Source: Candidatus Acidiferrales bacterium
GTDB taxonomy: Bacteria > Bacteroidota > Ignavibacteria > Kryptoniales > JAKASW01
DNA: 64,000 nucleotides
Direction of reading: 5' to 3'
Assembly (NCBI GenBank): GCA_035515795.1
Contig: DATJAY010000004.1
Location: forward strand, 186,001-250,000
Shown: positions 7,808-53,852 of the stretch, piece after piece
Numbering within the stretch: the stretch's first letter is position 1
Layout: each line of letters starts with the position of its first letter
The notes under the pieces: generated by a model
What the model was told of the DNA's origin: nothing
Seen by the model: only the letters and a program-made list of their open reading frames with translations
Databases searched by the model: none
Translations under genes and position numbers: made by a program

Positions 7808-10624
7808 TTAGTAAAGAGCCACTGTTTTCTTCCTGCCATCATACTTTACAACTTTGTCAGCCTTCTCCGTAGTATCCACTCCCGTTCCATGATTCGGCGA
7901 GACGACCACGATATTAAATGTTCTCGTCCTCATCATTCCTGGAAATTTGCCTTGGCGTTTACCGATTGTGAGAGTATGCGTGGAATCAGCCCACTTAAAT
8001 TCGATCGTGGAGTAAATTCCCTTTTCATAATCGTAGTTGTCGTTCTCATCCTCGTAAAGAGTAAAGTTCGCATCCGCACCTGTGTAAACACGGAGCTCGA
8101 TAGGATCGGCAAACTTTTCGGTTGAATATTGCATGAACGGTCCCATGGGAATAATCGAACCTGTCCTCACGAAAAGTGGAATCTTGCCGATGGGCGCGTC
8201 AGCAATGACGTCCCGGCCGCCTTCGTATTTTTTGCCGGTCCAGAAGTCAAACCAGCCGTCGCATTTCGGCAAATAGACTTTCGCAGCCTTCGGCCTGTCT
8301 TCATGGATTTGTTCCTTGGCAAATATCGACGGTGTCTTCCAGTAGAGTTCCATGTGGGCCGCACCTGGAGTTGCATTTTCGGTTTCAAGCACAAATTTGT
8401 ACTCTGTTCCGGCTGTCAACGCTACGGTGTCAGTGTATTGCTCGACGCTGGTATAGACTATCGGAAGTTGTTTACCATCAAGAATGATCCTTTTTCGATC
8501 ATAGCTTCTCAAGTGAAATTGATACTTGCCGGTCTCTTTCGGGATTAGTTTTCCTTCCCAACTTATCGAGAATGAAGAATCTGTAACATAGCTCGGTCTT
8601 CCTGTGGAATACCAATTAATATTTATGTCCGGTTCAACTTCTTGCTTTGTCACGATCATATGTTTGCTATCGCTGCAATATGTTGCGAGTATGCCCGCCT
8701 TGCCGTCATTTGTCTTAAAGTATTCCGGCCCGATCAGAACGCTTTGTTCAGGAGGTCGGTAATACATCCAATCTGTAACGGGTGTAACCATGATTGATGG
8801 GCCGAACATGAATTGGTTGTCAATGCCATAGGTCGTTTTATCTGATTCGAAATCCATCGGAAGTCCGCGCATCATGGTATATCCTTGACTCGTGACTTCC
8901 CATGCGAGCGAGTAAATATAGGGAAGGAGTCGGTAGCGCAGGTTGTCGAACTCAAGCATAGGCTCTGTGAATTCGCCGAATTCCCAGATCTCTCGCGGAG
9001 TTTCCGAGCCGTGTGCGCGGAATATCGGACTGAACGCACCGAACTGGAACATGCGCGCGTAGAATTCCTGGTACGCCGGATCCTTCCCGCCTCTGTTGAA
9101 GACGCCGCCGTATGCTCCGAGCACAAATGCTCCGATGTCGAATGTGTAGTAGGGGATACCTGCCATACAATGATTAATACCTGCTGAAATCTGGTCGCGA
9201 TAAATCTTCCAGTCTGCACCTATATCGCCAGTCCATGTTGTGGCTGCATTTCGTTGCTGGCCGGCATATGTCGATCTCGTAAGTATGTAGAGGCGCTTGT
9301 CCGCGAACTCTTTTCTATATGTCGAGTACAAATCATCCGTCATCGCGAGCGAGAATGCATTCAAGTATCTTGCCCATGTTCCCAGATAATTATTCCCGAC
9401 TCGTTTCATTTCGTATTCTGTGGAACCGACATTGTTGGCATTGATCAGATCAGGCTCGGTTGAATCGATCCATAGTGCATCGACGCCCTTTGACAGCAGG
9501 CCGTTCTTCAAATACTTCCAGTAAAGTCTGTTCGCACCCGGGTTGTACGCATCGTAATATTTAAACCCGCCCCAACCTATCGGCGAATAAAGGAAGCCAT
9601 GCTTCTCCATGTCCTTATAGATCATGGTATTAGGTCCTAGGGCAGGCCAGATTGAAATCATGAAATGAAAATGCATGTCATGAAGACTATCGATCATCCC
9701 TTTGGGATGCGGGTACGTCGTCGAATCGAAAAACATTCCGCTCCAGTTCTTCGCGCCGCCCCAGTAATCCCAATCCTGAACGATATTATCGATTGGCATT
9801 TTCAACTCGCGGTATTTCCTCGCGATCTCCAATACTTCTTCGCGAGTTGCGTAGTGTTCTTTACTTTGCCAATATCCATAAGCCCACTTGCCATACATGG
9901 GCGCGCGCCCGGTGATCATGCGGTATCCCGCGATGACGCTGTCCATGTTGTCACCAGCGATGAAATAGTAATCAATGTTGTCCCCGACATCGGACCATAA
10001 GGACATGTTTTTCTTGCCGTCGTCGTTGAAAACAGTCTTGGAGTAATTATCCCAGAGTATGCCGTAGTTCATGGCCGAAACAAGAAATGGAGTGATCGCA
10101 TTCGTGTTGGTTTGAACTAATGTGACTGTGTCGCCGCGGTAGTTCATGTAACCATGCTGGTCTGCGCCGAGGCCGTAAATTCCTTCATCGGAAGTAACGT
10201 TAAAGTCCTGTCTTACGTTGAACGAAGAATCTGTGCCGTAGAGGACCGGTTCCATGCCGCATCCATCTTCTTCAAGTATTTCCTTATCATTGGTGTCCGA
10301 AAATTTCACCTCGCCGTTTGTGAGTGAAATGATGGCTTTCAAGCGACTCGATGAAATCACGATACTACTGTCCTGCTTTTGATTTCCAACCTCTATCTTC
10401 TGTGGCTGGTTCATGATAACTGAAAGGCTTTTCTTCTTGTCAGTGCCTGCCGTTGACCACTTCTCGATTCTTAAGATGTTTGGTGCATAAAATTGAGCCT
10501 TTACATTTAGACCCTGGGTGGTTATGATAACACCGTTCGTGATTTGTTTAACACTTTTTTCCTGCGCAAAAGAAGTAAGTTTCAGCAGCACTGATAGGCA
10601 GATTATTATCCTAACTGATTTCAT
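7808..10624 (-). CDS. GH31 alpha-xylosidase-like hydrolase with PA14 insert
   Basis: A 938-residue exported glycoside hydrolase family 31 enzyme. The signal peptide begins MKSVRIII and ends near SFAQ. The N-terminal beta-sandwich spans about 30-235. The catalytic barrel (about 240-600) has the likely nucleophile D387 in DALWIDSTEPD and acid/base D467 in WTGDIGADW. A PA14-like domain (about 635-766, containing LRSYDRKRIILDGKQ) sits between the barrel and the C-terminal beta domains. The WIDSTEPD form resembles alpha-xylosidases more than alpha-glucosidases. A TTG six codons upstream keeps the frame, but the ATG used here puts the signal peptide at the N-terminus. With the GH2 beta-galactosidase nearby it fits trimming of xyloglucan oligosaccharides in the periplasm (inference). 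Other alpha-glycoside substrates are not excluded. Confidence 0.9.
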   Translation of the reverse strand: MKSVRIIICLSVLLKLTSFAQEKSVKQITNGVIITTQGLNVKAQFYAPNILRIEKWSTAGTDKKKSLSVIMNQPQKIEVGNQKQDSSIVISSSRLKAIISLTNGEVKFSDTNDKEILEEDGCGMEPVLYGTDSSFNVRQDFNVTSDEGIYGLGADQHGYMNYRGDTVTLVQTNTNAITPFLVSAMNYGILWDNYSKTVFNDDGKKNMSLWSDVGDNIDYYFIAGDNMDSVIAGYRMITGRAPMYGKWAYGYWQSKEHYATREEVLEIARKYRELKMPIDNIVQDWDYWGGAKNWSGMFFDSTTYPHPKGMIDSLHDMHFHFMISIWPALGPNTMIYKDMEKHGFLYSPIGWGGFKYYDAYNPGANRLYWKYLKNGLLSKGVDALWIDSTEPDLINANNVGSTEYEMKRVGNNYLGTWARYLNAFSLAMTDDLYSTYRKEFADKRLYILTRSTYAGQQRNAATTWTGDIGADWKIYRDQISAGINHCMAGIPYYTFDIGAFVLGAYGGVFNRGGKDPAYQEFYARMFQFGAFSPIFRAHGSETPREIWEFGEFTEPMLEFDNLRYRLLPYIYSLAWEVTSQGYTMMRGLPMDFESDKTTYGIDNQFMFGPSIMVTPVTDWMYYRPPEQSVLIGPEYFKTNDGKAGILATYCSDSKHMIVTKQEVEPDININWYSTGRPSYVTDSSFSISWEGKLIPKETGKYQFHLRSYDRKRIILDGKQLPIVYTSVEQYTDTVALTAGTEYKFVLETENATPGAAHMELYWKTPSIFAKEQIHEDRPKAAKVYLPKCDGWFDFWTGKKYEGGRDVIADAPIGKIPLFVRTGSIIPMGPFMQYSTEKFADPIELRVYTGADANFTLYEDENDNYDYEKGIYSTIEFKWADSTHTLTIGKRQGKFPGMMRTRTFNIVVVSPNHGTGVDTTEKADKVVKYDGRKKTVALY

Positions 10625-42384: not shown

Positions 42385-43698
42385 CTACAAACCGTACTTT
42401 TTCCTCTTCCGCCAAAGCGTTGCAGGATCGATCCCGAGAATCTTTGAAGCTTCCTCGACCGTCAGAGATTCATGTACCACTCTCGCGATATAATCTTTCT
42501 CAAGTTCATCGAGTGAAACAAGACGCTTGTTCTCCTTACTTTGGATCTCGTCGGGCAAGTGGTAGGGTTCTATTTTTCTTCCGTGGGCAAGGAGAACTGC
42601 GCGTTCGACCACATTTTCAAGTTGACGGATGTTCCCGGGCCATTGATAACCGGTAAGCATTTTGAACGCTTCGGAACTGACCTCAGGCTGGTTTTGCTTT
42701 CCGAATTTTTCGATGAAATGTTTTATGAGAATTGGTATATCGTCGGGTCGTTCACGCAATGAAGGGAGCTTTATGGTGACTCCGTTAATCCTGTAATAAA
42801 GATCATCGCGAAATCGTCCGGAGCCCAGGGCATCTTTAAGATCGCGGTTTGTTGCCGCGATGAACCGAACATCTACTTTTATTGTTTGCGAATCGCCGAC
42901 CCTTTCAAATTCCCGGCTCTGGAGAAATCGAAGGAGCTTTGCCTGAGTCGTCGTAGGTATTTCTGTGATCTCATCCAGGAATACCGTACCGCCATCTGCC
43001 ATTTCAAATCTTCCCTGGCGATCTTTTACTGCCCCGGTGAACGCACCTTTTACATGGCCGAACAGTTCACTTTCGAGGAGGCTCTCCGAAAGGGCGGCGC
43101 AGTTCACTGTAACAAAAGGACCGTCTTTGCGCGCGCTCGTATTGTGGATGAATCTTGCCATGACTTCCTTGCCCGTGCCGCTTTCGCCTTCGATCAACAC
43201 GCTTATGTTTGTGTCTGCGACTTCGCGTGCAAGATTGAGCAATGAAAGCATCTGCGGATTCGTAGTGATTATATCTTCCGACGCCTGATATAAATTTAAT
43301 TGCTGCTGGAGTTGCTTGAGTTGTCTTTGAAGTTTAAAGTTTTCATGTACTTTTTGAGCGAAGTGCTGCAGCTCCTGAAAGTCAAAAGGTTTCTGAAGAT
43401 AATCGTAGGCTCCTTGCTTTATGGCTTGAACCGCGGAGTCAACTGAGCCATGCGCGGTTACGATCACCGCTATTATGTCGGGGAAAATTTTCTTAATTTC
43501 AGCCAGAAGCTGGATGCCATCAAGGGGATACATTTTCAAATCCAGGAATGCAATGTCAAATTGTTTTTGGTTGGCAATCTTCAGAGCTTCATCGGATCTT
43601 GACACTGCGGTGACCTCGAGCCCGATCGATTCCAGACAAATTTTCATCGTACGGAGAATGTTCGGCTCATCGTCTACCAGCAAAACATTTGTTTTCAT
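42385..43698 (-). CDS. Sigma-54-dependent response regulator, NtrC family
   Basis: A 437-residue activator. The receiver domain (about 1-120) has DDE near residue 10, acceptor D53 in [12 protein letters not shown] and K103 in LQKP. The AAA+ domain (about 143-375) has Walker A GESGTGKE (171-178), GAFTGA (218-223) for contact with sigma-54, and [10 protein letters not shown]. The C-terminal Fis-type helix-turn-helix ends [22 protein letters not shown]. The ATG overlaps the kinase stop (ATGA), which overrules a longer start 30 codons upstream. Partner of the kinase gene that precedes it; target promoters are unknown and no good -24/-12 element was found close by. Confidence 0.94.
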
Positions 43699-45563
43699 GC
43701 CGAGATCTTTCTTTCGCCGACGATTCTTTTTCCTATCGGGATTGAAAAGGTGAAGACGGTGCCGATCCCGATTTGGCTTTCGACCCAAATCCTCCCGTCG
43801 TATAATTCAACTATCTCCTTCGCGATGGATAACCCCAAGCCGACGGAGCCGGGCGATGGGTTGGAGGAATCCTGCAACTGCACAAATTTGTCAAAGATTT
43901 TTTCCAGTTCGTCCTTTTCAATACCGCACCCCGTGTCTCGCACTGCTACAACCAGATTATCTCCGTTCATCGCTGCATCCACGATCACCGTTCCGCCGGC
44001 ATCAGTAAATCTCAAAGCATTTGTGACTAGATTGGAAATTACCCATGATAACTGCTGATAATCAGCCAAGAAAACGGGAATTGCGCCGTCCGTATTGATA
44101 ATGAGTCTAACATTTTTGTTTGTGAACTGAAGGAGAAGCGGCTGCACTGAAAACTCAATCAATGATTTCGTCTCAACTCTGTCTTCCTTTAGCTGTATTT
44201 TTCCCGACTCTATTCTTGAAAGTTCGAGCAGTTCACGCACTAATTTGGTCAAGCGTTCAGCGTCGTGTTTTCCCGCCGCAAGAAGCTCCCGCTGCTTCTT
44301 GTTGACATGACCGATATGTTCGTCCTTAAGTATGTCGAAAGTCATGTTGATTGATGTAAGAGGAGTCCGAAACTCGTGAGAGACCCTTGCCATGAAGTCA
44401 GATTTAACTTTGTCCAGCTCTTTAAATTGTGTGACGTCCTGTAAAATCAAAACCGCGCCGGAAATTTTTCCGGAGCTTGCCACGGTCGGGTTCAGCTTTA
44501 TCCTGAAATATCTGTTCTCCCCTTCAAATTTTAATTCGAAGTACGGAGGTATGTCGTTTAAGTTTTCTCCGTGGAGACTGCGGTCTACGTACTTGGCAAG
44601 TTCCGAATTCTTGACGACATCCTGAAATTGTTTCCCGACCACCTCTTCTTCCAAGAGGTAAAACAGATCTTCCGCCAACTTATTCATCAACACAAGCCGT
44701 CCTTCTATGTCGACGATTATTATCGGATCGGATATTGTAGAAACTATCGTCTCGGATTTTTTCTTTTCCGAGATGAGTTTTTCAATGTTTATCTCTTCAT
44801 ACTTTTGAAGCCGCTCAGCCATCTTGTTGAACTCGTGTGCCAACTCTCCAATTTCATCTCGCGAATTTATGTCGGCCCTGACGTCGAGAAAACCGCGTCC
44901 GACTTTTCTGACCGTATCGATCAGCTTTTCTGCAGGTTCTGTGATATAGTGGGAAAACTGCCAGCTTGCTACTATGCTCAAGACTATTGCCAATGCCAAC
45001 GCTCCGAGGACTGCGAGTGTCGCTTGATCTCCGGTGTCTGTTACTTTCGTGACAGTCTGAACCATAGCGCTGTTGTTTATGTCGAGCAATTGGAAGCATT
45101 CAATCTTAATCTTGTCAAGAAGGGGAAGGATATTGTTGTAATGATAATAAAGGGCAGCTCTGTCACGATCCCGATAAATAATGTCTTTCAGCGTATCGGT
45201 GTCGCTGGAATATTTTGAGTAGAGGGAGTCGATTCGCTCCAATATTTTTGCCCCGCGCTGCAAACCGTTGGAGCTGACCGCTTGTTGAAATGCCGCAAAG
45301 AAATTCTTCTGGTTCTCGTGGAATTGTATGTAGCCTGCGTCGCTGTAACCGCCGAGCATTAATAATTGCGCGCTGTTGTCTTGCTCAAGGCTTCTCAACA
45401 TGCTTTGCGCGGCGATAACGTTCTGGTAATTCTGTCCGATCATTGTTGTGACGGCAGAAGTCAACTCATGAAAGTTATAGATCGACCAAACGCTGACGAT
45501 CACGTTTATGATCACGAGGACAGTGAATCCAGCCGCGACTTTTGCTCTAAGAGTGCTGAACAT
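43695..45563 (-). CDS. Membrane histidine kinase, HAMP-PAS, KinB-like
   Basis: A 622-residue sensor kinase. Membrane helix 1 is at about 8-28, a helical periplasmic domain at 30-180 (four-helix style, resembling KinB-type sensors), and helix 2 at about 181-203. HAMP (204-256), PAS (268-378), HisKA with H396 in ARVSHEFRTP, and HATPase (about 495-610) with NLVTNALRFTDAGG, DTGCGIE and GSVGLGLSI follow. Its stop overlaps the start of the sigma-54 activator, so they form one two-component system. The signal is unknown; KinB-type domains have been linked to small metabolites and envelope state. Confidence 0.93.
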   Translation of the reverse strand: MFSTLRAKVAAGFTVLVIINVIVSVWSIYNFHELTSAVTTMIGQNYQNVIAAQSMLRSLEQDNSAQLLMLGGYSDAGYIQFHENQKNFFAAFQQAVSSNGLQRGAKILERIDSLYSKYSSDTDTLKDIIYRDRDRAALYYHYNNILPLLDKIKIECFQLLDINNSAMVQTVTKVTDTGDQATLAVLGALALAIVLSIVASWQFSHYITEPAEKLIDTVRKVGRGFLDVRADINSRDEIGELAHEFNKMAERLQKYEEINIEKLISEKKKSETIVSTISDPIIIVDIEGRLVLMNKLAEDLFYLLEEEVVGKQFQDVVKNSELAKYVDRSLHGENLNDIPPYFELKFEGENRYFRIKLNPTVASSGKISGAVLILQDVTQFKELDKVKSDFMARVSHEFRTPLTSINMTFDILKDEHIGHVNKKQRELLAAGKHDAERLTKLVRELLELSRIESGKIQLKEDRVETKSLIEFSVQPLLLQFTNKNVRLIINTDGAIPVFLADYQQLSWVISNLVTNALRFTDAGGTVIVDAAMNGDNLVVAVRDTGCGIEKDELEKIFDKFVQLQDSSNPSPGSVGLGLSIAKEIVELYDGRIWVESQIGIGTVFTFSIPIGKRIVGERKISA

Positions 45564-45856
45564 ATTTATTTATAAGTTTGCAAAACGGAGGATAATTATC
45601 AATGTTTGAAGATGCCGGCTGTTAATTCATTGCGTATAGCAAAAAAACGTGCGCTATGAGGGGGCGCTGCTGAAACATGAGGAAGGAGCGGTGAGTATGA
45701 AATGGCTCTGCGGAATTATTCCACCTAAAAACAAGGAATAATTACGCACGCGTCGCGATGTATATTTATTCAACTCCTTTTTCAGCCAAAAGTAGAGTCT
45801 TTTAAGTATCTGCACGATGCCAATCGTGGCATATGGCTTGATGAAATGACACTGTG
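45564..45856. promoter_or_regulatory. Divergent upstream region with two dyads
   Basis: No supported gene. It holds two inverted repeats, AATTATTCC (45714-45722) with GGAATAATT (45735-45743), and ATGCCA-ATCG-TGGCAT (45817-45832). A 14-codon frame starting ATG near 45696, preceded by AAGGAG, could be a leader peptide but is too short to support. The kinase promoter lies in the left part. Confidence 0.45.
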
Positions 45857-46222
45857 ATGAGAAAGTCTGAAAAAAAACATGTTTTAGGAATTGTCGCCGA
45901 TGAAGATGCGATGTTCGACATTCTTGCTAAGTTCCTGACTAAAGAGGGATATGAGGTTGAACGGGTGATCCATGAAATCGGTGAAGAGGAAGATCTTTCG
46001 TTGATTATTCACGCTCCAACCAGGTCCTCTGATCGATCGAAGAATTTCTTCAAAAATCTGAAGAAGAAAAAAATTATCATTGCCCAATCTGGAGACGATG
46101 AGTACTCAGAAATCGACGACAATACGATTTTATTTTCGGAGCGTCCGCTTAATCTGAAGCAACTGAGTGACACGATAGAGAAGGCACTCTCAAGATCGAA
46201 TCAAGATGTGACTGTTCACTGA
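45857..46222 (+). CDS. Degenerate receiver-domain protein
   Basis: A 121-residue protein with the length and strand pattern of a CheY-like receiver. The acidic pair is partly kept (ADEDAMF), but the place of the phosphoacceptor aspartate reads SLIIHAPTR, and the usual K-P reads SERPLN. It should therefore not be phosphorylated in the normal way and may act as an adaptor (inference). A GTG one codon upstream is also possible. It lies between the two-component pair and the multiheme gene cluster, reading toward the latter. Confidence 0.68.
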   Translation: MRKSEKKHVLGIVADEDAMFDILAKFLTKEGYEVERVIHEIGEEEDLSLIIHAPTRSSDRSKNFFKNLKKKKIIIAQSGDDEYSEIDDNTILFSERPLNLKQLSDTIEKALSRSNQDVTVH

Positions 46223-46489: not shown

Positions 46490-49165
46490 ATGAAGCATCT
46501 ACTTATTTTGTCGTTCTCTGCCTCATTTCTTGGTCTAATAGGACCGGCATTCGGGCAGTCCAATGACGATTGCCTGACTTGCCACTCTGATTCCTCGTTG
46601 ACAATGGAGAAAAGTGGAACAGCGGTTAGTCTTTATGTCAATGAGAAAAGCTTTAAGTCGTCCGTTCATGGGGACGCGTCCTGCGTCGATTGCCATGCGG
46701 GGTTTGATCCTAATAGCACTCCTCACAAAAAAGAAATAACTCCGGTCGATTGCGGCAGCTGCCACGATATCCCATTAGCAAAAGACACCAAACAAATGAA
46801 AGGACTGGCACACTCCAGGCTTCAATGTTTCGATTGTCATGGCAAACATGACATACAATCAACAGATAAAATCGCTGGAGACAGAGAATGTCTATCGTGT
46901 CATTCGGCGGAAAAGATTTTCCTTACATCTGCACATGCAAGAGCTGACATAAATAAGAATAAAATGGGCTGCGAATCGTGCCACGATAAGGCCCACGAGG
47001 TAATGGCTGTGACGCCGGGGCGATGGGCGGCTGAAGACACTCTTTGCGCTCGGTGTCACGGAGGAATTAATTCTGCAATCGAGGCAGGAGTCCACAAGAA
47101 GGCTTTTGTCAGCGGATCTTTGACTTGTGTGAGCTGCCACGCCGCGCACGGGACGCAAGTTTCTAAAGCAATCATCTCTCAGAACGCTTGTTTCAAGTGC
47201 CACACCGACAAAAGGCTTCTTGTTGCGGGGCGATTGTCAGGCAGCGAAATCTCTCTCGTGCAATCGTACGATCACAGCATACACGAGGAGTCGGTAAGAA
47301 AAAATGGGAAGGGTGCGACCTGCATAGACTGTCATGGCTCGCACACGATCAAACCTGCAAGCGATCCGGCGTCTCCGGTTAACCGTGCAAATATCGTCGC
47401 GACATGCGGAAGATGTCATGCAGACATCGAAACTCATTATCTGAATTCGTCGCACGGTCAGGGCTTCAAGAACGGGCTTGCTGTTTCTCCGGTCTGCACT
47501 GATTGCCACAATGAACATAGTATTAATTCGATAAGCGATCCAAACTCGCCGGTGAGCCGCGCTAATGAACCCAAGATATGTCTTGATTGTCATATTGGTA
47601 ATGAGGCGGTGTTAAAGATCGTTGGGGTTTCGCCCGCCTTTCTGGAAAGCATAAAATACAGTGTTCATCTGGTTGCGCTTTCGAAAGGAAATCTAAAGGC
47701 TGCGACCTGCAGCGACTGCCACGGGGCGCATGATATGCTGCCCGCAGGAAATCCTCAGTCAAAAGTTTTCAGGAATAATATTCCCAGCACATGCGGACAG
47801 AGCGGCTGTCATCAAAATGTCGCCGCAAAATATTTCGATGGGATTCACGGCAAGGCAATTCTGGCGGGGAACAACAGCGCGCCGGTTTGCACGAACTGCC
47901 ACGGCGACCATCAAATATTGGCCCCCAGCAATCCGCAATCCACGGTTTCAAACGGAAATATAGTTCAGGTTTGTTCTCAGTGTCACGGTTCCGTCAGCCT
48001 AACACAGCGTTACGGTTTGCCTCAACAGACAGTGGGGAGTTACCTGGATAGTTATCATGGACTCGCCACGCAGGGCGGATCGACGACAGTTGCAAATTGT
48101 GCGAGCTGTCATGGATCGCACGACATAAAGCCATCCTCTGATCCGACGTCGCCAATCAACAAGGCAAACCTTGCCGGAACCTGCGGAAAATGCCATTCAG
48201 GCGCTGATGCACAGTTTGCTTCTGCTGCTGTCCACGTCTTGCCTGCTTCCAGGAACGATCCGCTGCTTTATTGGATTTCTCAGATTTACGTCGTGATGAT
48301 CGCAGGCATCATCGGACTTATGATTCTTCATAATATTTTTGATTTCACCAAGAAGGCAAAACGTAAGCTTAAAAAGCGGAGAAATCCATCATTCGAGCAC
48401 ATCCACTTTGAAGCTAGACTCCATACGAGAATGACAAAGTGGGAGATGGCCCAGCATTGGGGCTTGCTGATCAGTTTCACGCTCCTTGTTCTTACCGGAT
48501 TCATGCTGAGATTTCCCGATTCGTGGTGGGTGAAATCGATCCGCGCTGTCGGAGGGGGAGGAGAAACCGTGTTTGAACTCAGGAGTCTTGTCCACCGGAT
48601 GAGCGCAATCCTGCTGATTGCTACTGCTCTTGTCCACTTCTATTACATAATTTTTACAAAGAGGGGGAGAGAATTTATCCATGATATGATCCCGAGACTT
48701 AAAGATGCTCGTGACGTCAAGGATATTATAAAGTATTTCCTCGGGTTGGAAAATCAGCGGCCGAAATTCGACAGATTCAGCTACGTCGAAAAAGCTGAAT
48801 ATTGGGCCCTGATTTGGGGAACGGTGGTCATGGTGACAACCGGTCTGCTTCTTTGGTTCGACAATCTCTCGTTGGGGCTATTCACAAAACTTGGCCTTGA
48901 TGCTGCGACATTAATCCATTACTATGAAGCGATACTTGCTTCACTGTCGATTGTCGTTTGGCATTTATATTTTGTTGTGTTTAACCCTGATGTTTATCCG
49001 ATGAACCTTTCGTGGTTGTTCGGTACGATAACCGAAGAGGAGATGTTTGACGAACATCCCTTGGAATTAGAGCGGCTGAAAGAAAAAGAGGAAAGGGCAA
49101 ATGAAATCGTCGTCGAAAACGGAAATGAGACCCCATCGACGGAAGATGACAGCGTCGAGCGGTAA
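46490..49165 (+). CDS. 19-heme cytochrome c fused to cytochrome b membrane domain
   Basis: An 891-residue protein. After a signal peptide (ending PAFGQS) come 18 CxxCH motifs and one CGQSGCH (CX4CH) motif, about residues 27-595. From about residue 270 the motifs sit in repeated units marked by forms like SDPASPVNRAN before CGRCH. Five hydrophobic helices follow (about 600-850) with histidines in AQHWGL, VHRMSA, LVHFYY, IHYYEA and VWHLYF, the style of a formate-dehydrogenase-gamma or b561-like cytochrome b. This layout suits taking electrons from the quinol pool to periplasmic hemes. It is the first gene of the cluster. Direction of flow is not determined by the sequence. Confidence 0.93.
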   Translation: MKHLLILSFSASFLGLIGPAFGQSNDDCLTCHSDSSLTMEKSGTAVSLYVNEKSFKSSVHGDASCVDCHAGFDPNSTPHKKEITPVDCGSCHDIPLAKDTKQMKGLAHSRLQCFDCHGKHDIQSTDKIAGDRECLSCHSAEKIFLTSAHARADINKNKMGCESCHDKAHEVMAVTPGRWAAEDTLCARCHGGINSAIEAGVHKKAFVSGSLTCVSCHAAHGTQVSKAIISQNACFKCHTDKRLLVAGRLSGSEISLVQSYDHSIHEESVRKNGKGATCIDCHGSHTIKPASDPASPVNRANIVATCGRCHADIETHYLNSSHGQGFKNGLAVSPVCTDCHNEHSINSISDPNSPVSRANEPKICLDCHIGNEAVLKIVGVSPAFLESIKYSVHLVALSKGNLKAATCSDCHGAHDMLPAGNPQSKVFRNNIPSTCGQSGCHQNVAAKYFDGIHGKAILAGNNSAPVCTNCHGDHQILAPSNPQSTVSNGNIVQVCSQCHGSVSLTQRYGLPQQTVGSYLDSYHGLATQGGSTTVANCASCHGSHDIKPSSDPTSPINKANLAGTCGKCHSGADAQFASAAVHVLPASRNDPLLYWISQIYVVMIAGIIGLMILHNIFDFTKKAKRKLKKRRNPSFEHIHFEARLHTRMTKWEMAQHWGLLISFTLLVLTGFMLRFPDSWWVKSIRAVGGGGETVFELRSLVHRMSAILLIATALVHFYYIIFTKRGREFIHDMIPRLKDARDVKDIIKYFLGLENQRPKFDRFSYVEKAEYWALIWGTVVMVTTGLLLWFDNLSLGLFTKLGLDAATLIHYYEAILASLSIVVWHLYFVVFNPDVYPMNLSWLFGTITEEEMFDEHPLELERLKEKEERANEIVVENGNETPSTEDDSVER

Positions 49166-49517
49166 GATCAGTTCGAGTTTGAAGAAACACTTTGAATCGC
49201 TGGTGACAACGAGGATCAGCATCGTACTCCAAATGATGTACGCGCATCCCGACGAATTGGTTGATCTTGAAAGCGGCGAGAAATATATTTGCAGTGTCTG
49301 CGACCGTGAATACAAAAGGTGCGAAGTCGAACTCGATTACAGATGTGAAGTTGCAAGAAAGCTTGAAACCGAATTCAAGGAGCTTGAGCTTGCCTTAAGC
49401 AGGCTGCGTGGCGGGAATTATGGATTTTGCGAGAGATGCTATAAATTTATCGGGAAAGAAGAACTTGAGAGAATGCTTACTCGAACCGTCTGCGATTCAT
49501 GCGGCGGGCTGAGTTGA
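49101..49517 (+). CDS. DksA/TraR-type zinc-finger protein
   Basis: A 138-residue protein beginning inside the end of the cytochrome gene in another frame. The start is supported by GAGGAAAGG just before the ATG; it overlaps the cytochrome by 65 bases. The C-terminal part reads RLRGGNYGFCERC, then CDSC, the four-cysteine finger of the DksA/TraR family, but the coiled-coil acidic tip typical of DksA is short. An extra cysteine pair CSVC and two more cysteines lie at about 62-85. DksA proteins act on RNA polymerase, so it may regulate the cluster (inference). Overlap suggests coupled translation. Confidence 0.83.
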   Translation: MKSSSKTEMRPHRRKMTASSGKISSSLKKHFESLVTTRISIVLQMMYAHPDELVDLESGEKYICSVCDREYKRCEVELDYRCEVARKLETEFKELELALSRLRGGNYGFCERCYKFIGKEELERMLTRTVCDSCGGLS

Positions 49518-49594
49518 CATGAAACAACCCTTGTAAGATAAAGCAGTACCATTATTGAAAATGCAGTAGCACAAATGAAAACGGAGGTAACATC

Positions 49595-50146
49595 ATGAAA
49601 TCTGTAGCGTCAGTTTTGGTGATAATTTTATTTTCGGCGATCGTGTCGATCGCGGCCGACAATAATCATCAATATGTCGGTGTTCAGGTTTGCAGCATGT
49701 GCCATAAAACTGACAAGAACGGTCAGCAGTTTCAAAAATGGCAGGCAAGCAAACATTCACAGGCAATGAAAGCCCTCGAGACTGCCGACGCTGACAAGAT
49801 AGCGGCTGCCCACGGTGTGAAAGGAAAAGCCTCTGAAGCGAAAGAGTGCATAGAATGTCACCAGACTGCTTACGATGCGCCGGCTTCCTTGCTCGGCCCG
49901 AAGTTCAGCAAAGAAGACGGCGTACAGTGTGAATCGTGCCATGGTGCAGGCAACGACTACAAAGCGATGTCGACCATGAAAGACAAGCAAAAAGCGATTG
50001 CCGCAGGATTGACAGTTCTCTCGGTCGATGATGGCAGTGCCGAGAAACTCTGCGAAACCTGCCACAACAAGAAGAGCCCGACATTCAAATCTTTCGATTT
50101 TAAGAAGATGTGGGCCGAGATTGCTCACCCTGTTCCTAAGCAATAA
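49595..50146 (+). CDS. Tetraheme cytochrome c554-like protein
   Basis: A 183-residue periplasmic protein with a signal peptide ending near IAADN and four heme motifs: CSMCH, CIECH, CESCH and CETCH. The spacing and YVGVQVCSMCH opening match the cytochrome c554 family, with W-Q-x-S-K-H-S-Q-A as a conserved segment. ACGGAGGTAAC before the ATG is a strong ribosome site. It likely shuttles electrons between the membrane-bound 19-heme protein and the outer-membrane components downstream. Confidence 0.93.
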   Translation: MKSVASVLVIILFSAIVSIAADNNHQYVGVQVCSMCHKTDKNGQQFQKWQASKHSQAMKALETADADKIAAAHGVKGKASEAKECIECHQTAYDAPASLLGPKFSKEDGVQCESCHGAGNDYKAMSTMKDKQKAIAAGLTVLSVDDGSAEKLCETCHNKKSPTFKSFDFKKMWAEIAHPVPKQ

Positions 50147-50314
50147 GAAGTTTGTAAGTTCGGAAGAGAAGGAAGTGGAGTTGCTGGGAGGGCCGGCGTT
50201 GGCTGCGCCTGAGGTCATTATAGGCGAGGTGCATTGCGGCAGCGTCCTTCCGTTTACCCATTCGAACGACTTAACATCTTGTTTTTTCTTTGAGAACAAA
50301 AAGAGAGGTGGGCC

Positions 50315-51682
50315 GTGAAAAGTTTCTCTCATCGGTCAGCTATTCGCACTGAGCGCTCTGCTTTCAGCTGTCGGTTACCGGTTGATAAACAAGTGCTGTT
50401 GATGATATTTGCAGCCACTTTCCTTTTTGTTGATGCCTGTGCCCAGTCATTTAGCGGGAGATTCGTTACAACCTTTTATTCATACCAGCAGTACGATACC
50501 ACCAATACGTCGAAGATAAGTCTCCGCGGCTTTGAAGCTATGCAACTAAATTTTGGAACGGGCGATTATCAATTACATACCTACATTCTAGCGACGAACG
50601 ATTTCATAACAAGTCAACCAAACGATCCGCTGCTTCGAGCGGAGAATTTATACCTTGAGGCGCGCAACGTTGCCGATGCCGTTAATCTAAAGATCGGCAG
50701 GCAGCCGGTGTTTCAACAGGTGGGAATTTCTTCGTTTGATGGCTTGAGTGCCGATGCAAATTTCCTCGACAACAAAATTAGTCTCGTGGTTTTTGGAGGC
50801 TCGCTTCCTCCGGTTGATGAAAGGTTCAAGCTGAATTCTGATCTGAAAGATAACTTGGTGTCCGGCGCACAGGCGAGCTATTCGCCTTTTGAAAATTTCA
50901 GGATTGGCGGCGCCTATGTAGACAAGACATTTAAGCCGTCGAGCTACTACGCGCTCAGAAGAGACAGTATTGATGCGCCGAGCGACGTTCGTCAGGTATT
51001 GATAGACCCATCATCAGTGGCAAGTCAGTTCGTTTCCGGCGACGTTTTCTATTACACACAAGACGTTTCCGGATATCTCAGGCTGGATTACGACTTAAAC
51101 TTTGAGGAGTGGAATCGTACCGAAGTTTCTTTTCGTTATTCGCCGATAACCGCCCTATCTGCCGATGTCGGATATTTTCATCATGATTCGAGGTTGCCAT
51201 TCAACTCGATATTCTCAGTGTTCGACCATAGTGGTACTGACGAGTACGATTTTGGATTAAATTACTTTTTGATGAAAGATGTTTCTGCTTACGGCTCCGT
51301 CAATAAGATCTATTATTCCGGTGATAATTCAACCCAGTTTACAATTGGCGCGAACGTTTATTTGTTTAACCTGAACTTTTCTCACGATGATGGATTTGCC
51401 GGGAACCTGAACGGCGTAAGCGCGCAGCTCATCTATCCTTTCATGGACCGGAAGCTTATGCTGATTGCATCCGGTGAAATCACCGGTTATAAGATATTGC
51501 AGGCTGATTCTTTGCCCACAAGCCGCTTGTACAGCGGCTCGCTTGGCTTGACGTGCAGGCCCGTAAATCTTCTATCAGTTACCTTGCAAGCTCAATACTA
51601 TCAGGATCCGGTTTACAGAAACGACTTCCGCGGGTATCTGCAGGTGAGCTACTATTTCTTCAGTAAATCAGGTATGCAGTGA
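50315..51682 (+). CDS. Outer-membrane beta-barrel protein of cytochrome cluster
   Basis: A 455-residue protein without heme motifs. GTG start after GAGGTGGG. A long N-terminus with a hydrophobic stretch (about 27-43, ending DACAQS) acts as signal. From residue 45 on the sequence alternates hydrophobic and polar residues with aromatic ends of strands (FVTTFYSYQQYD, RLDYDLNFEEWN) and finishes in F (YLQVSYYFF near the end), the pattern of an outer-membrane barrel. Placed between cytochrome genes, it could be the porin of a porin-cytochrome conduit (inference). No named family was recognised. Its stop overlaps the upstream part of the next gene's ribosome site. Confidence 0.82.
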   Translation: MKSFSHRSAIRTERSAFSCRLPVDKQVLLMIFAATFLFVDACAQSFSGRFVTTFYSYQQYDTTNTSKISLRGFEAMQLNFGTGDYQLHTYILATNDFITSQPNDPLLRAENLYLEARNVADAVNLKIGRQPVFQQVGISSFDGLSADANFLDNKISLVVFGGSLPPVDERFKLNSDLKDNLVSGAQASYSPFENFRIGGAYVDKTFKPSSYYALRRDSIDAPSDVRQVLIDPSSVASQFVSGDVFYYTQDVSGYLRLDYDLNFEEWNRTEVSFRYSPITALSADVGYFHHDSRLPFNSIFSVFDHSGTDEYDFGLNYFLMKDVSAYGSVNKIYYSGDNSTQFTIGANVYLFNLNFSHDDGFAGNLNGVSAQLIYPFMDRKLMLIASGEITGYKILQADSLPTSRLYSGSLGLTCRPVNLLSVTLQAQYYQDPVYRNDFRGYLQVSYYFFSKSGMQ

Positions 51683-51693
51683 TGGAGGCGAGC

Positions 51694-52953
51694 ATGAGAC
51701 ATCTTGTGGTCTTGGGAGTCGTTTTTGTCGCAGGACTTGTGACTACTTCAAGCTTGTTTGCACTGAAAGATTCTCCGGAATCTGACAACCAAAAGCTCAT
51801 CAAATTTTCTCACTCTAAACACATAAACGATGTCGGCGTCGCGTGCGCTGATTGCCATACCGCGGTAATGACCAGTACAAAGGAGACGGATATTCTTCTT
51901 CCATCGATGGAAACATGTTACACCTGTCATGATCAGGCCACTACGAAGTGCGATTTTTGTCATACTTCTTCCGACAGTGCAACATACAAGGACCTTGTTC
52001 AAACGAGCGGTCCGGTTTTTTTCTCACACCAGCATCACGCGGGCGACTTGAAATTAAAATGCGAAACGTGCCATCAAGGGTTGGATAAAGTTGATTATGC
52101 GGAGCAGGACGCAAATGCTCTCCCAAAGATGGAACAGTGTGTAACATGTCATGGCCTTGTAGAAACGAATGTCAGGACGGACAAAGTTGATTATGTCGTG
52201 AAGGCGGCTCCTGGAGGGTGCGAGACCTGTCATAAAGACCTGACAAAACTAGTTCCGGCTTCTCATCGTGAGACAGATTTTGTGAGCCAGCACAAGAATT
52301 TCGTAAATGTGTCAGGGCCGCAAAATGACTGCAAATCCTGTCACAGCCCTGCCACTTGTCAGGAGTGCCATGATGCTTCAAACATGGCAAAGGATTTAAC
52401 ACCAGGACAGATCTATGTGCCGTCGACTCCGTCGCTTTCTCCATTGACGACGCACGATAAAACTACCGCGGAGAAAGTTCATCCCGAGAACTATCGGTTT
52501 ACACATTCCATCGACGCAAAAGGCAGAGAGAGCAACTGCTATACTTGTCATGATGAACGGGCCTTCTGTGTGGGATGCCATACTTCAAACGCAAATGGTT
52601 CGAGGATAGAACCAGTGTGGCACGAAGGCGGGAATTTCATAACGTTTGGTGTGGGCAGCGGCGGCGGAAGACATGCGCAATATGCCCGGAAGGATATTGA
52701 AAGCTGTGCGAGCTGCCACGATGCTCAAGGAGCAGACCCGACTTGCATAACATGCCACACCGATCCTGACGGGATAAAAGGGAACGACCCCCGAACTCAT
52801 GCGGCGTTTTTTATGCATGACGTTCAAGGAAGCTGGCACGACGACGCGGGAGCAGTCTGTTACACATGCCACACCGATCCGAATGCTCATCCAGGCGGCA
52901 AGCCAGGGATAGGGTTTTGTGGCTATTGTCACGGTAGTCATCCGGGAGACTGA
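51694..52953 (+). CDS. Periplasmic 14-heme cytochrome c
   Basis: A 419-residue exported protein with 14 CxxCH motifs, from CADCH and CYTCH near the N-terminus to CYTCH and CGYCH at the end. The ATG at 51694 is preferred because GGAGG lies six bases ahead; a GTG overlapping the barrel stop would give five more residues. The signal peptide ends near SLFALKD. Motif density is about one heme per 28 residues, as in class III-type multiheme wires. It follows the barrel gene directly and could sit in or near the barrel as the conducting part. Confidence 0.92.
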   Translation: MRHLVVLGVVFVAGLVTTSSLFALKDSPESDNQKLIKFSHSKHINDVGVACADCHTAVMTSTKETDILLPSMETCYTCHDQATTKCDFCHTSSDSATYKDLVQTSGPVFFSHQHHAGDLKLKCETCHQGLDKVDYAEQDANALPKMEQCVTCHGLVETNVRTDKVDYVVKAAPGGCETCHKDLTKLVPASHRETDFVSQHKNFVNVSGPQNDCKSCHSPATCQECHDASNMAKDLTPGQIYVPSTPSLSPLTTHDKTTAEKVHPENYRFTHSIDAKGRESNCYTCHDERAFCVGCHTSNANGSRIEPVWHEGGNFITFGVGSGGGRHAQYARKDIESCASCHDAQGADPTCITCHTDPDGIKGNDPRTHAAFFMHDVQGSWHDDAGAVCYTCHTDPNAHPGGKPGIGFCGYCHGSHPGD

Positions 52954-52955
52954 AA

Positions 52956-53852
52956 ATGAAAAAATATTTAGGCATTGGCCGTCTGTTATTTCCCGTCAAT
53001 TCGATTGTTGTCCTCGGGTTGATTTTTAGCTCCTGCAGCAAACTGCAAAATAATGTTTTGGCACCTCCGCAATCTCAGTCCAACATTCACCCTGTGGGCT
53101 GGGGGACACAAGGTTCCGCAAACTTTCATGGAACTTACATCAGGAACAACAATTATGACATGACAACATGCACGTCGTGTCACGGCAGCGATCTTAACGG
53201 GGGCATTGCGAAGCGTTCGTGCTATGATTGCCACGGCGGGACTAACGGCACCCTTGCGTGTAATACATGCCATGGCAGTGCTTTGAATGCTGCGCCGCCA
53301 AAGGATCTATCCGGCGACTCTGTCACAACAAATCCGACGGTTGGTGCACATCAAAGTCACGTCGCGACGAACAATTTTTTTGCAAACGTTTCCTGCTCAT
53401 CGTGCCACCTTGTTCCGGAGACCGCCGGTCCCGGACTACACCCGTTCGGCACCAAAGTTTCAGTTTTATTTTCCGGCGTGTCATTAACTCAGACAAATCT
53501 CCCGGGTTCCCGGTATTACGACAGCACCATGGCGACGGTGAAACCTGTGCCGATATTTAATTTTCAAACACTCCAGTGCTCGAACACCTATTGTCACGGC
53601 AACTTCAAGAACGGGAATAATTTTTCACCTAAGTGGACAGCCGTCGACGGAAGTCAGGATTCGTGCGGTTCATGCCATGGTTTACCTCCGCACGGTGCGA
53701 TTAACGGGATTGTCCCGGTTTATCAAAGTGAAAGTGCACAGAATTGTTTTCTTTGCCACGAGCCAATGATGGGACAGACCGGGATTCAAGACAAGTCCTT
53801 GCATGTGAATGGAAAACTTGAGCTGTACGGCAATTCTCAAGATTCATGGTAG
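52956..53852 (+). CDS. Heptaheme lipoprotein with CX4CH heme motif
   Basis: A 298-residue lipoprotein with a lipobox IFSSC (Cys 27). Heme motifs: CTSCH, CYDCH, CNTCH, CSSCH, CSNTYCH (CX4CH), CGSCH and CFLCH. The CX4CH plus CxxCH arrangement is that of the Geobacter OmcB-related family (GSu_C4xC__C2xCH). Those proteins sit on the outer membrane and take part in extracellular electron transfer. Its ATG lies three bases after the previous stop, with GGGAG before it. It would be the outermost piece of the path. Confidence 0.92.
   Translation: MKKYLGIGRLLFPVNSIVVLGLIFSSCSKLQNNVLAPPQSQSNIHPVGWGTQGSANFHGTYIRNNNYDMTTCTSCHGSDLNGGIAKRSCYDCHGGTNGTLACNTCHGSALNAAPPKDLSGDSVTTNPTVGAHQSHVATNNFFANVSCSSCHLVPETAGPGLHPFGTKVSVLFSGVSLTQTNLPGSRYYDSTMATVKPVPIFNFQTLQCSNTYCHGNFKNGNNFSPKWTAVDGSQDSCGSCHGLPPHGAINGIVPVYQSESAQNCFLCHEPMMGQTGIQDKSLHVNGKLELYGNSQDSW

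What the first reader, a model, noticed from the sequence alone, without database searches (positions are those of the whole stretch)
46490..53852. 44-heme cluster resembling a complete electron route across the envelope
Counting motifs gives 19 (18 CxxCH + 1 CX4CH), 4, 14 and 7 heme sites over four proteins. The set has a membrane cytochrome b fusion at the inner side, a small tetraheme shuttle, an outer-membrane barrel, a 14-heme protein and an OmcB-like lipoprotein. Family knowledge (c554, CX4CH lipoprotein) plus order suggests a porin-cytochrome conduit, but the exact set, including the b-domain fused directly to a 19-heme chain, is not one I recognise as a named system.
Basis: partly seen in the sequence, partly recalled or inferred. 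Interest (0 to 1): 0.88.

Follow-up and report, generated by a model that had tools for sequence, protein, structure and literature searches.

The report
Five-gene porin-cytochrome electron export route
Four heme-rich proteins and a membrane barrel, encoded side by side, probably carry respiratory electrons from the inner membrane to the outside of a Kryptonia-type bacterium; it is a well-preserved member of a conduit already reported from Ignavibacterium, so it is informative but not a new kind of system.

Summary
In detail: 46490-53852 encodes 44 c-heme sites (18+1, 4, 14, 6+1) on four proteins around a predicted outer-membrane barrel, in one tight same-strand block. No other ORF of 60 aa or more in the 64-kb window has a CxxCH motif. 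The best reading is an inner-membrane quinol oxidase of CbcL type (19 c-hemes plus a diheme-type b domain) passing electrons through a c554-like tetraheme protein to a 14-heme protein in a roughly 22-strand barrel, and on to a CX4CH lipoprotein. The kind is known: Shi et al. 2014 describe the same order in Ignavibacterium album (IALB_1840-1837), and CbcL/MtoC/MtrH homologues with 3-23 hemes are catalogued. New detail: all 19 heme sites recur in a split two-gene form in another family, the CX4CH site aligns with ordinary CX2CH sites, and the inner-membrane module is swapped between lineages. Function is inferred; acceptor and direction are unproven.

The parts
46490..49165 (+). CbcL-like inner-membrane quinol:cytochrome c oxidoreductase: signal peptide, 19 c-heme sites (18 CxxCH + CX4CH at residue 435), one TM anchor (about 599-617), then a four-helix cytochrome b561/FdnI-like domain (about 647-833)
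   Evidence: sequence; PF01292 72.8 bits against cut-off 30.1; near-invariant His 656, 702, 716, 810, 825; 19 heme sites conserved across the genus and in the split form
49101..49517 (+). DksA/TraR-like C4 zinc-finger ORF; start uncertain (relatives align from about residue 14-27), overlaps the end of the CbcL gene; role in the route unknown
   Evidence: NF033459 32.6 bits, below its cut-off of 105; same position in the genus loci L065-L076, 58-70% identity
49595..50146 (+). Cytochrome c554-like periplasmic tetraheme protein (4 CxxCH, 8 His in all), putative shuttle
   Evidence: PF13435 64.9 bits against cut-off 20.8; directly upstream of the barrel in 85 and further upstream in 10 of 107 loci; His count
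50315..51682 (+). Outer-membrane barrel, about 22 long strands, sheath of the conduit; annotated GTG start probably too early (signal peptide at about residues 27-45)
   Evidence: AlphaFold2 mean pLDDT 84; best structural matches are 22-strand barrels, Z about 20; 19 invariant columns over 32 sequences
51679..52953 (+). 14-heme periplasmic/trans-barrel cytochrome (14 CxxCH, 32 His); start may be an ATG at 51694
   Evidence: heme sites conserved in alignment A2, with 11- and 12-heme forms lacking the two C-terminal sites; Cytochrome_C7 64.1 bits
52956..53852 (+). Outer-membrane heptaheme lipoprotein (6 CxxCH + CX4CH 'CSNTYCH'; lipid-anchor Cys27; 14 His = 7 x 2)
   Evidence: Invariant Cys27 and invariant CX4CH site in 30 sequences; TIGR01904 44.1 bits against cut-off 27
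45854..46222 (+). 122-aa receiver-like ORF upstream (resemblance to a response-regulator receiver judged by eye), possible regulator
   Evidence: No Pfam hit at E 0.001; conserved at this place in 6 genus loci, 34-50% identity
42385..45563 (-). Divergent histidine kinase (43695-45563) and NtrC-type response regulator (42385-43788), possible control of the operon
   Evidence: HisKA/HATPase_c/PAS/HAMP and Response_reg/Sigma54_activat/HTH_8; kinase next to the cluster in several genus loci; no sigma-54 site above chance

Best explanation
It is a trans-envelope electron-transfer operon of porin-cytochrome (Pcc) type, as described for Ignavibacterium album, with a CbcL/MtoC/MtrH-type quinol oxidase as its inner-membrane entry. 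Menaquinol is oxidised at the b domain. Electrons pass from the two b-hemes to the 19-heme periplasmic domain tethered to it, then (with or without the c554-like tetraheme shuttle) to the 14-heme protein plugged into the roughly 22-strand barrel, and out to the lipid-anchored heptaheme protein, which hands them to an extracellular acceptor such as Fe(III)/Mn(IV) minerals, an electrode or a partner cell. Shown here: the genes, heme sites, barrel fold prediction, lipoprotein and TM anchors, and conserved gene order. Inferred: complex assembly, outward direction, quinol as donor, identity of the acceptor.
For: 44 heme sites far above chance. b domain with five near-invariant His and PF01292 above cut-off. 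Predicted barrel, pLDDT 84. Barrel -> 11-14-heme -> CX4CH lipoprotein order conserved in 101 of 105 loci across the class. Junctions overlap or touch in the window, and median gaps across loci are 6 and 9 nt. Exactly 8 and 14 His for 4 and 7 hemes, as bis-His ligation requires. The genome has four cytochrome c assembly (PF01578) hits and further quinol-oxidase-like multiheme modules. Literature: IALB_1840-1837 with the same order and a 14-heme protein; CbcL has 9 c-hemes plus a diheme b domain and passes electrons to a small periplasmic cytochrome (PMC9129911); Melioribacter reduces Fe(III) (PMC6137239).
Against: No biochemistry or expression data. The complex could not be modelled, and the 14-heme model is poor (pLDDT 53). 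I. album, which carries a described Pcc cluster, is reported unable to grow on Fe(III) or Mn(IV) oxides (PMC4245776), so the acceptor may be something else. The CbcL gene is not next to the conduit in many relatives (39 of 107 loci had no such module within reach), so its pairing with this conduit rests on position in this genus and some other lineages.
Confidence: 0.85

Rival explanations
1. The same conduit runs inward: electrons from extracellular Fe(II), a cathode or a partner cell enter through the lipoprotein and reduce the quinone pool through the b domain.
For: CbcL homologues include MtoC of Fe(II) oxidisers, and Shi et al. found no feature that separates quinol oxidation from quinone reduction (PMC6295460).
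Against: No Pcc cluster had been found in a known Fe(II) oxidiser (PMC4245776). A class member, Melioribacter, reduces Fe(III). The genome also holds ImcH-like and cytochrome b6/multiheme modules.
Confidence: 0.12
2. The barrel is an ordinary solute porin and the cytochromes form a periplasmic chain to a soluble acceptor (for example nitrite, tetrathionate or selenite), with no trans-outer-membrane wire.
For: The barrel's only family hit is a sub-threshold Porin_4 match and its closest solved folds are transporters by general barrel shape. The genome has an octaheme tetrathionate-reductase-family protein elsewhere.
Against: Strict adjacency of barrel and 14-heme gene in 105 of 107 loci, plus a multiheme protein with an invariant lipid-anchor Cys right behind. 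No terminal reductase is encoded in the block.
Confidence: 0.08
3. The conduit is real, but the 19-heme b-fusion is only a neighbour and serves other periplasmic acceptors; other modules (ImcH-like, cytochrome b6 with 11 hemes) feed the conduit.
For: The upstream module varies among relatives: fused CbcL, split 18+1 plus b, 11-heme plus cytochrome b, or none. The own genome has the 11-heme/cytochrome b6/tetraheme module and an ImcH-like protein at other loci.
Against: In all sampled genomes of the same genus the CbcL or a related b/multiheme module lies directly upstream of the conduit. One conduit fed by several oxidases, as proposed for Geobacter, fits both facts.
Confidence: 0.2

Closest known systems
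Ignavibacterium album pcc cluster IALB_1840-1839-1838-1837 (Shi, Fredrickson & Zachara 2014, PMC4245776)
   Same: Order periplasmic c-cytochrome, porin, 14-heme cytochrome of about 400 aa, outer-membrane cytochrome with an atypical motif; the same class of bacteria; single-contig class members held here (L182-L184) have a 400-aa 14-heme protein in this order
   Different: The window copy has a 424-aa 14-heme protein and a fused 19-heme b protein plus a DksA-like ORF upstream; the IALB sequences themselves were not available for alignment
CbcL/MtoC/MtrH quinol oxidases/quinone reductases (PMC6295460, PMC9129911)
   Same: N-terminal multiheme c domain followed by a FdnI/HydC-type b domain with conserved His; 3-23 CX2CH motifs known in the family, Ignavibacteriae included
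   Different: 19 sites instead of 9 in Geobacter CbcL, one of them CX4CH; five TM helices counted after the signal peptide against six described
Geobacter OmbB-OmaB-OmcB and Ext conduits (PMC6148476, PMC4245776)
   Same: Periplasmic multiheme cytochrome + barrel + redox lipoprotein architecture; heme lipoproteins with atypical motifs
   Different: Different heme numbers (8-heme periplasmic and 12-heme outer-membrane cytochrome in the characterised Geobacter complex); sequence relation not testable here
MtrCAB/PioAB/MtoAB
   Same: Works like it: barrel sheath around a multiheme wire
   Different: No MtrB_PioB family match; 14-heme instead of 10-heme wire; smaller barrel

Membership tests
Pcc cluster, Ignavibacterium type (IALB_1840-1837) | Gene order periplasmic c-cytochrome - porin - large periplasmic c-cytochrome - outer-membrane c-cytochrome | tested here: met
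   Window gene order and 101 of 105 relatives for the last three genes; described order
Pcc cluster, Ignavibacterium type (IALB_1840-1837) | 14 CX2CH motifs in the large periplasmic cytochrome (about 400 aa) | tested here: met
   14 motifs in 424 aa; relatives 398-431 aa with 14
Pcc cluster, Ignavibacterium type (IALB_1840-1837) | Porin with 18-22 predicted trans-membrane strands | tested here: met
   24 strand elements in the model, two of them short and probably a loop hairpin, so about 22
Pcc cluster, Ignavibacterium type (IALB_1840-1837) | Direct sequence homology to the IALB proteins | not tested
   No held genome could be identified as I. album by name; only size and architecture agree
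CbcL/MtoC/MtrH | N-terminal multiheme c domain (3-23 CX2CH) fused to a C-terminal FdnI/HydC-like b domain | tested here: met
   18 CX2CH + 1 CX4CH; PF01292 above cut-off, TIGR01583 53.7 bits below its equivalog cut-off
CbcL/MtoC/MtrH | Conserved b-heme His residues in the TM region | tested here: met
   H656 94%, H702 98%, H716/H810/H825 100% over 86 sequences
CbcL/MtoC/MtrH | Six transmembrane helices | tested here: inconclusive
   Hydropathy shows five TM helices plus the signal peptide; the published count may include the latter
CbcL/MtoC/MtrH | Alignment to Geobacter CbcL and quinol oxidase activity | not testable with these tools
   Reference sequence not reached in the available collections; activity needs the bench
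MtrB/PioB barrel (MtrCAB-type conduit) | Match to MtrB_PioB family models | tested here: not met
   No MtrB family hit for the barrel in Pfam or NCBIfam at E 0.1; none in the own genome
MtrA/PioA/MtoA | 10-heme periplasmic wire | tested here: not met
   14 heme motifs; only a partial 22.5-bit DmsE-family match against cut-off 192
OmbB-OmaB-OmcB (Geobacter Pcc group I) | Sequence homology of barrel and cytochromes | not tested
Cytochrome c554 family (tetraheme protein) | Pfam Cytochrome_C554 match | tested here: met
   64.9 bits against cut-off 20.8; not the Nitrosomonas equivalog (47 against 400)
Geobacter CxxxxCH/CxxCH domain proteins (lipoprotein) | TIGR01904/PF09698 match above cut-off | tested here: met
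   44.1 against 27 and 31 against 21.7 bits

The most novel reading that the evidence does not exclude
The 19-heme tethered domain plus the 14-heme wire are long enough to form a nearly continuous heme chain from quinone pool to cell surface, so electrons could cross the periplasm of this genus without a diffusing shuttle. The barrel family would then define a class-specific conduit onto which different quinol oxidases are plugged and repeatedly fused or split.
Probability: 0.12. Interest if true: 0.6.

Novelty: new member of a known kind. Interest (0 to 1): 0.36.

Why it matters
It shows that the conduit reported as an outlier from one Ignavibacterium genome is carried by about 60% of the good genomes of its class, including the Kryptonia order, with a fixed outer-membrane part and an exchangeable inner-membrane part. 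That makes extracellular respiration a likely common trait of a mostly uncultured class and gives clear gene targets for a test in cultured members (Melioribacter, Ignavibacterium, Stygiobacter). The conserved CX4CH sites suggest that they carry heme and should be counted.

Tried and rejected
MtrB membership: no family match; weak PF11854 hits in five relatives were followed up for the best one (L097), whose 640-aa ORF looks by eye like a TonB-dependent-receptor-type barrel, so they are probably cross-hits. Sigma-54 promoter upstream of the operon: 28 matches in the window with up to 2 mismatches against 28.1 expected, no support. Promoter and terminator scan: no clear excess over shuffles. 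Structure of the 14-heme protein: model too poor to use, so no fold search was made. Fold search of the barrel gave transport barrels of similar strand number; MtrB was not among the listed rows, which says nothing about relationship. Programmed frameshift as the origin of the split form: junction gaps vary (-40 to +20 nt, both frames), so they are ordinary gene pairs.
Full report
OBSERVATION. All CxxCH motifs found in ORFs of 60 aa or more in the 64-kb window lie in four neighbouring plus-strand ORFs between 46490 and 53852: 18+1, 4, 14 and 6+1 sites, 44 in total. Shuffling gives at most 2 motifs per protein. The barrel and 14-heme genes overlap by 4 nt and the lipoprotein gene starts 2 nt after the 14-heme stop.

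WHAT THE PROTEINS ARE. The 891-aa protein has a signal peptide, 19 heme sites, one TM helix near 599-617 and a cytochrome b561/FdnI-like domain (PF01292 72.8 bits, cut-off 30.1). Five His (656, 702, 716, 810, 825) are conserved in 94-100% of 86 sequences, enough for two b-hemes. The 183-aa protein is c554-like (PF13435 64.9 bits). The barrel has only a sub-threshold Porin_4 hit but a confident AlphaFold2 model from a 32-sequence alignment: pLDDT 84, about 22 long strands, no plug domain in the chain. Its best solved neighbours are 22-strand barrels at Z about 20, a general shape match. The 14-heme protein matches Cytochrome_C7 and keeps its heme sites across relatives, with the two C-terminal sites absent in 11- and 12-heme forms. 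The last protein matches the Geobacter CxxxxCH/CxxCH domain (TIGR01904 44.1 bits) and has an invariant lipid-anchor Cys and an invariant CX4CH site. His counts of 8 and 14 in the tetraheme and heptaheme proteins equal two per heme.

RELATIVES. The barrel profile matches 226 of 369 good genomes of the class. In a phylum sample only three genomes outside the class match, one of them clearly (E 4e-14). Over 107 distinct loci, 105 barrels are followed by the 11-14-heme gene (the other two end at a contig edge), 101 of these 105 by the CX4CH lipoprotein, and the c554-like gene is directly upstream in 85 and further upstream in 10. Median gaps are 6 and 9 nt for the last two junctions. The cytochromes are therefore not split over different loci.

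THE INNER-MEMBRANE PART IS EXCHANGED. Upstream of the fixed core lie, by lineage, fused multiheme-b proteins of 13, 16, 18 or 19 sites, a split pair (18+1-heme protein plus separate b subunit), an 11-heme protein with a multi-TM cytochrome b, a roughly 497-aa protein with 6+1 sites, or nothing within reach. In the window's own genome the cytochrome b6/11-heme/tetraheme set and a 7-heme NapC-type protein with three TM helices (ImcH-like in layout) lie at other loci, and an octaheme tetrathionate-reductase-family protein with a b561 partner lies at a third. This resembles Geobacter, where several quinol oxidases are proposed to feed extracellular electron transfer (PMC6295460).

FUSION AND SPLITTING. 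All 19 heme sites of the window protein occur at the same places in seven sampled split pairs, including the CX4CH site. In 16- and 13-heme fusions that site reads CX2CH, and in one relative CX5CH, so the CX4CH is an expanded version of a real heme site. The split c subunits end in a TM helix and a basic tail, and the b subunits start with a short cytoplasmic stretch, so the fusion joins two cytoplasmic ends; junctions vary in length and frame. In the b-domain tree fused and split forms are interleaved, which implies more than one fusion or splitting event; the number of events was not tested formally.

HOW IT PROBABLY WORKS. Menaquinol -> b-hemes -> 19-heme domain -> tetraheme shuttle (or direct) -> 14-heme protein in the barrel -> heptaheme lipoprotein -> extracellular acceptor. 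The CbcL precedent (9 c-hemes, diheme b domain, measured transfer to the periplasmic triheme PpcA) is in PMC9129911. That this set forms one chain, and its outward direction, are inferences. The acceptor is open: Melioribacter reduces Fe(III) (PMC6137239), but I. album was reported not to grow on Fe(III) or Mn(IV) oxides (PMC4245776).

WHAT IS KNOWN. Shi and colleagues listed IALB_1840 (periplasmic c-cytochrome), IALB_1839 (porin), IALB_1838 (14 hemes, 400 aa, the largest Pcc periplasmic cytochrome then known) and IALB_1837 (outer-membrane cytochrome with atypical motif), and placed porin and 14-heme protein outside their five Pcc groups (PMC4245776). Three single-contig class members held here have the same order with a 400-aa 14-heme protein (L182-L184), but I could not name them. 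CbcL/MtoC/MtrH homologues carry 3-23 motifs and occur in Ignavibacteriae (PMC6295460). Ignavibacteria conduits are also reported from bioanodes (PMC7399161) and hot springs (PMC6137239), and a comparable uncharacterised seven-gene cluster from a Bacteroidetes anode genome (PMC8258643). The set is therefore a new member of a known kind.

LIMITS. No expression or biochemistry; the 14-heme fold was not obtained; Geobacter and I. album reference proteins were not available for direct comparison; gene starts of the barrel, the 14-heme protein and the DksA-like ORF are uncertain; heme-motif and TM counts come from simple pattern and hydropathy scripts.

Noticed in passing
window 49101-49517: DksA/TraR-like zinc-finger ORF overlaps the end of the CbcL-like gene and is kept at that place throughout the genus (58-70% identity); not found next to the conduit in the other families sampled.
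   Followed up: partly
window 45854-46222: 122-aa receiver-like ORF without a Pfam hit, conserved (34-50%) between the histidine kinase and the cytochrome operon in six genus loci; fast-evolving for its position.
   Followed up: partly
L185 around 8100-8250 (oriented to the barrel): In a single-contig 3.30-Mb genome of family f10 the 16-heme fusion frame breaks inside the b domain, with the rest of the domain in another frame; sequencing error or a broken gene.
   Followed up: no
L164: Tandem duplication of the whole c554-barrel-14-heme-lipoprotein core in one Ignavibacteria genome.
   Followed up: no
L079, L084, L090: A lineage (family f3) with an 11-heme wire has three multi-TM proteins (about 740, 530 and 505 aa) directly upstream instead of any cytochrome b module; possibly a different electron donor or an ion pump.
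   Followed up: no
L199 5236-7468 (G000 contig C28): Own genome has an octaheme protein well above the cut-off of the tetrathionate-reductase family (588 against 375 bits) paired with a b561 subunit.
   Followed up: partly
L160 and L195: Lipoprotein of the core enlarged to 18+3 heme motifs in one lineage, so the outer end of the conduit varies most in heme number.
   Followed up: no
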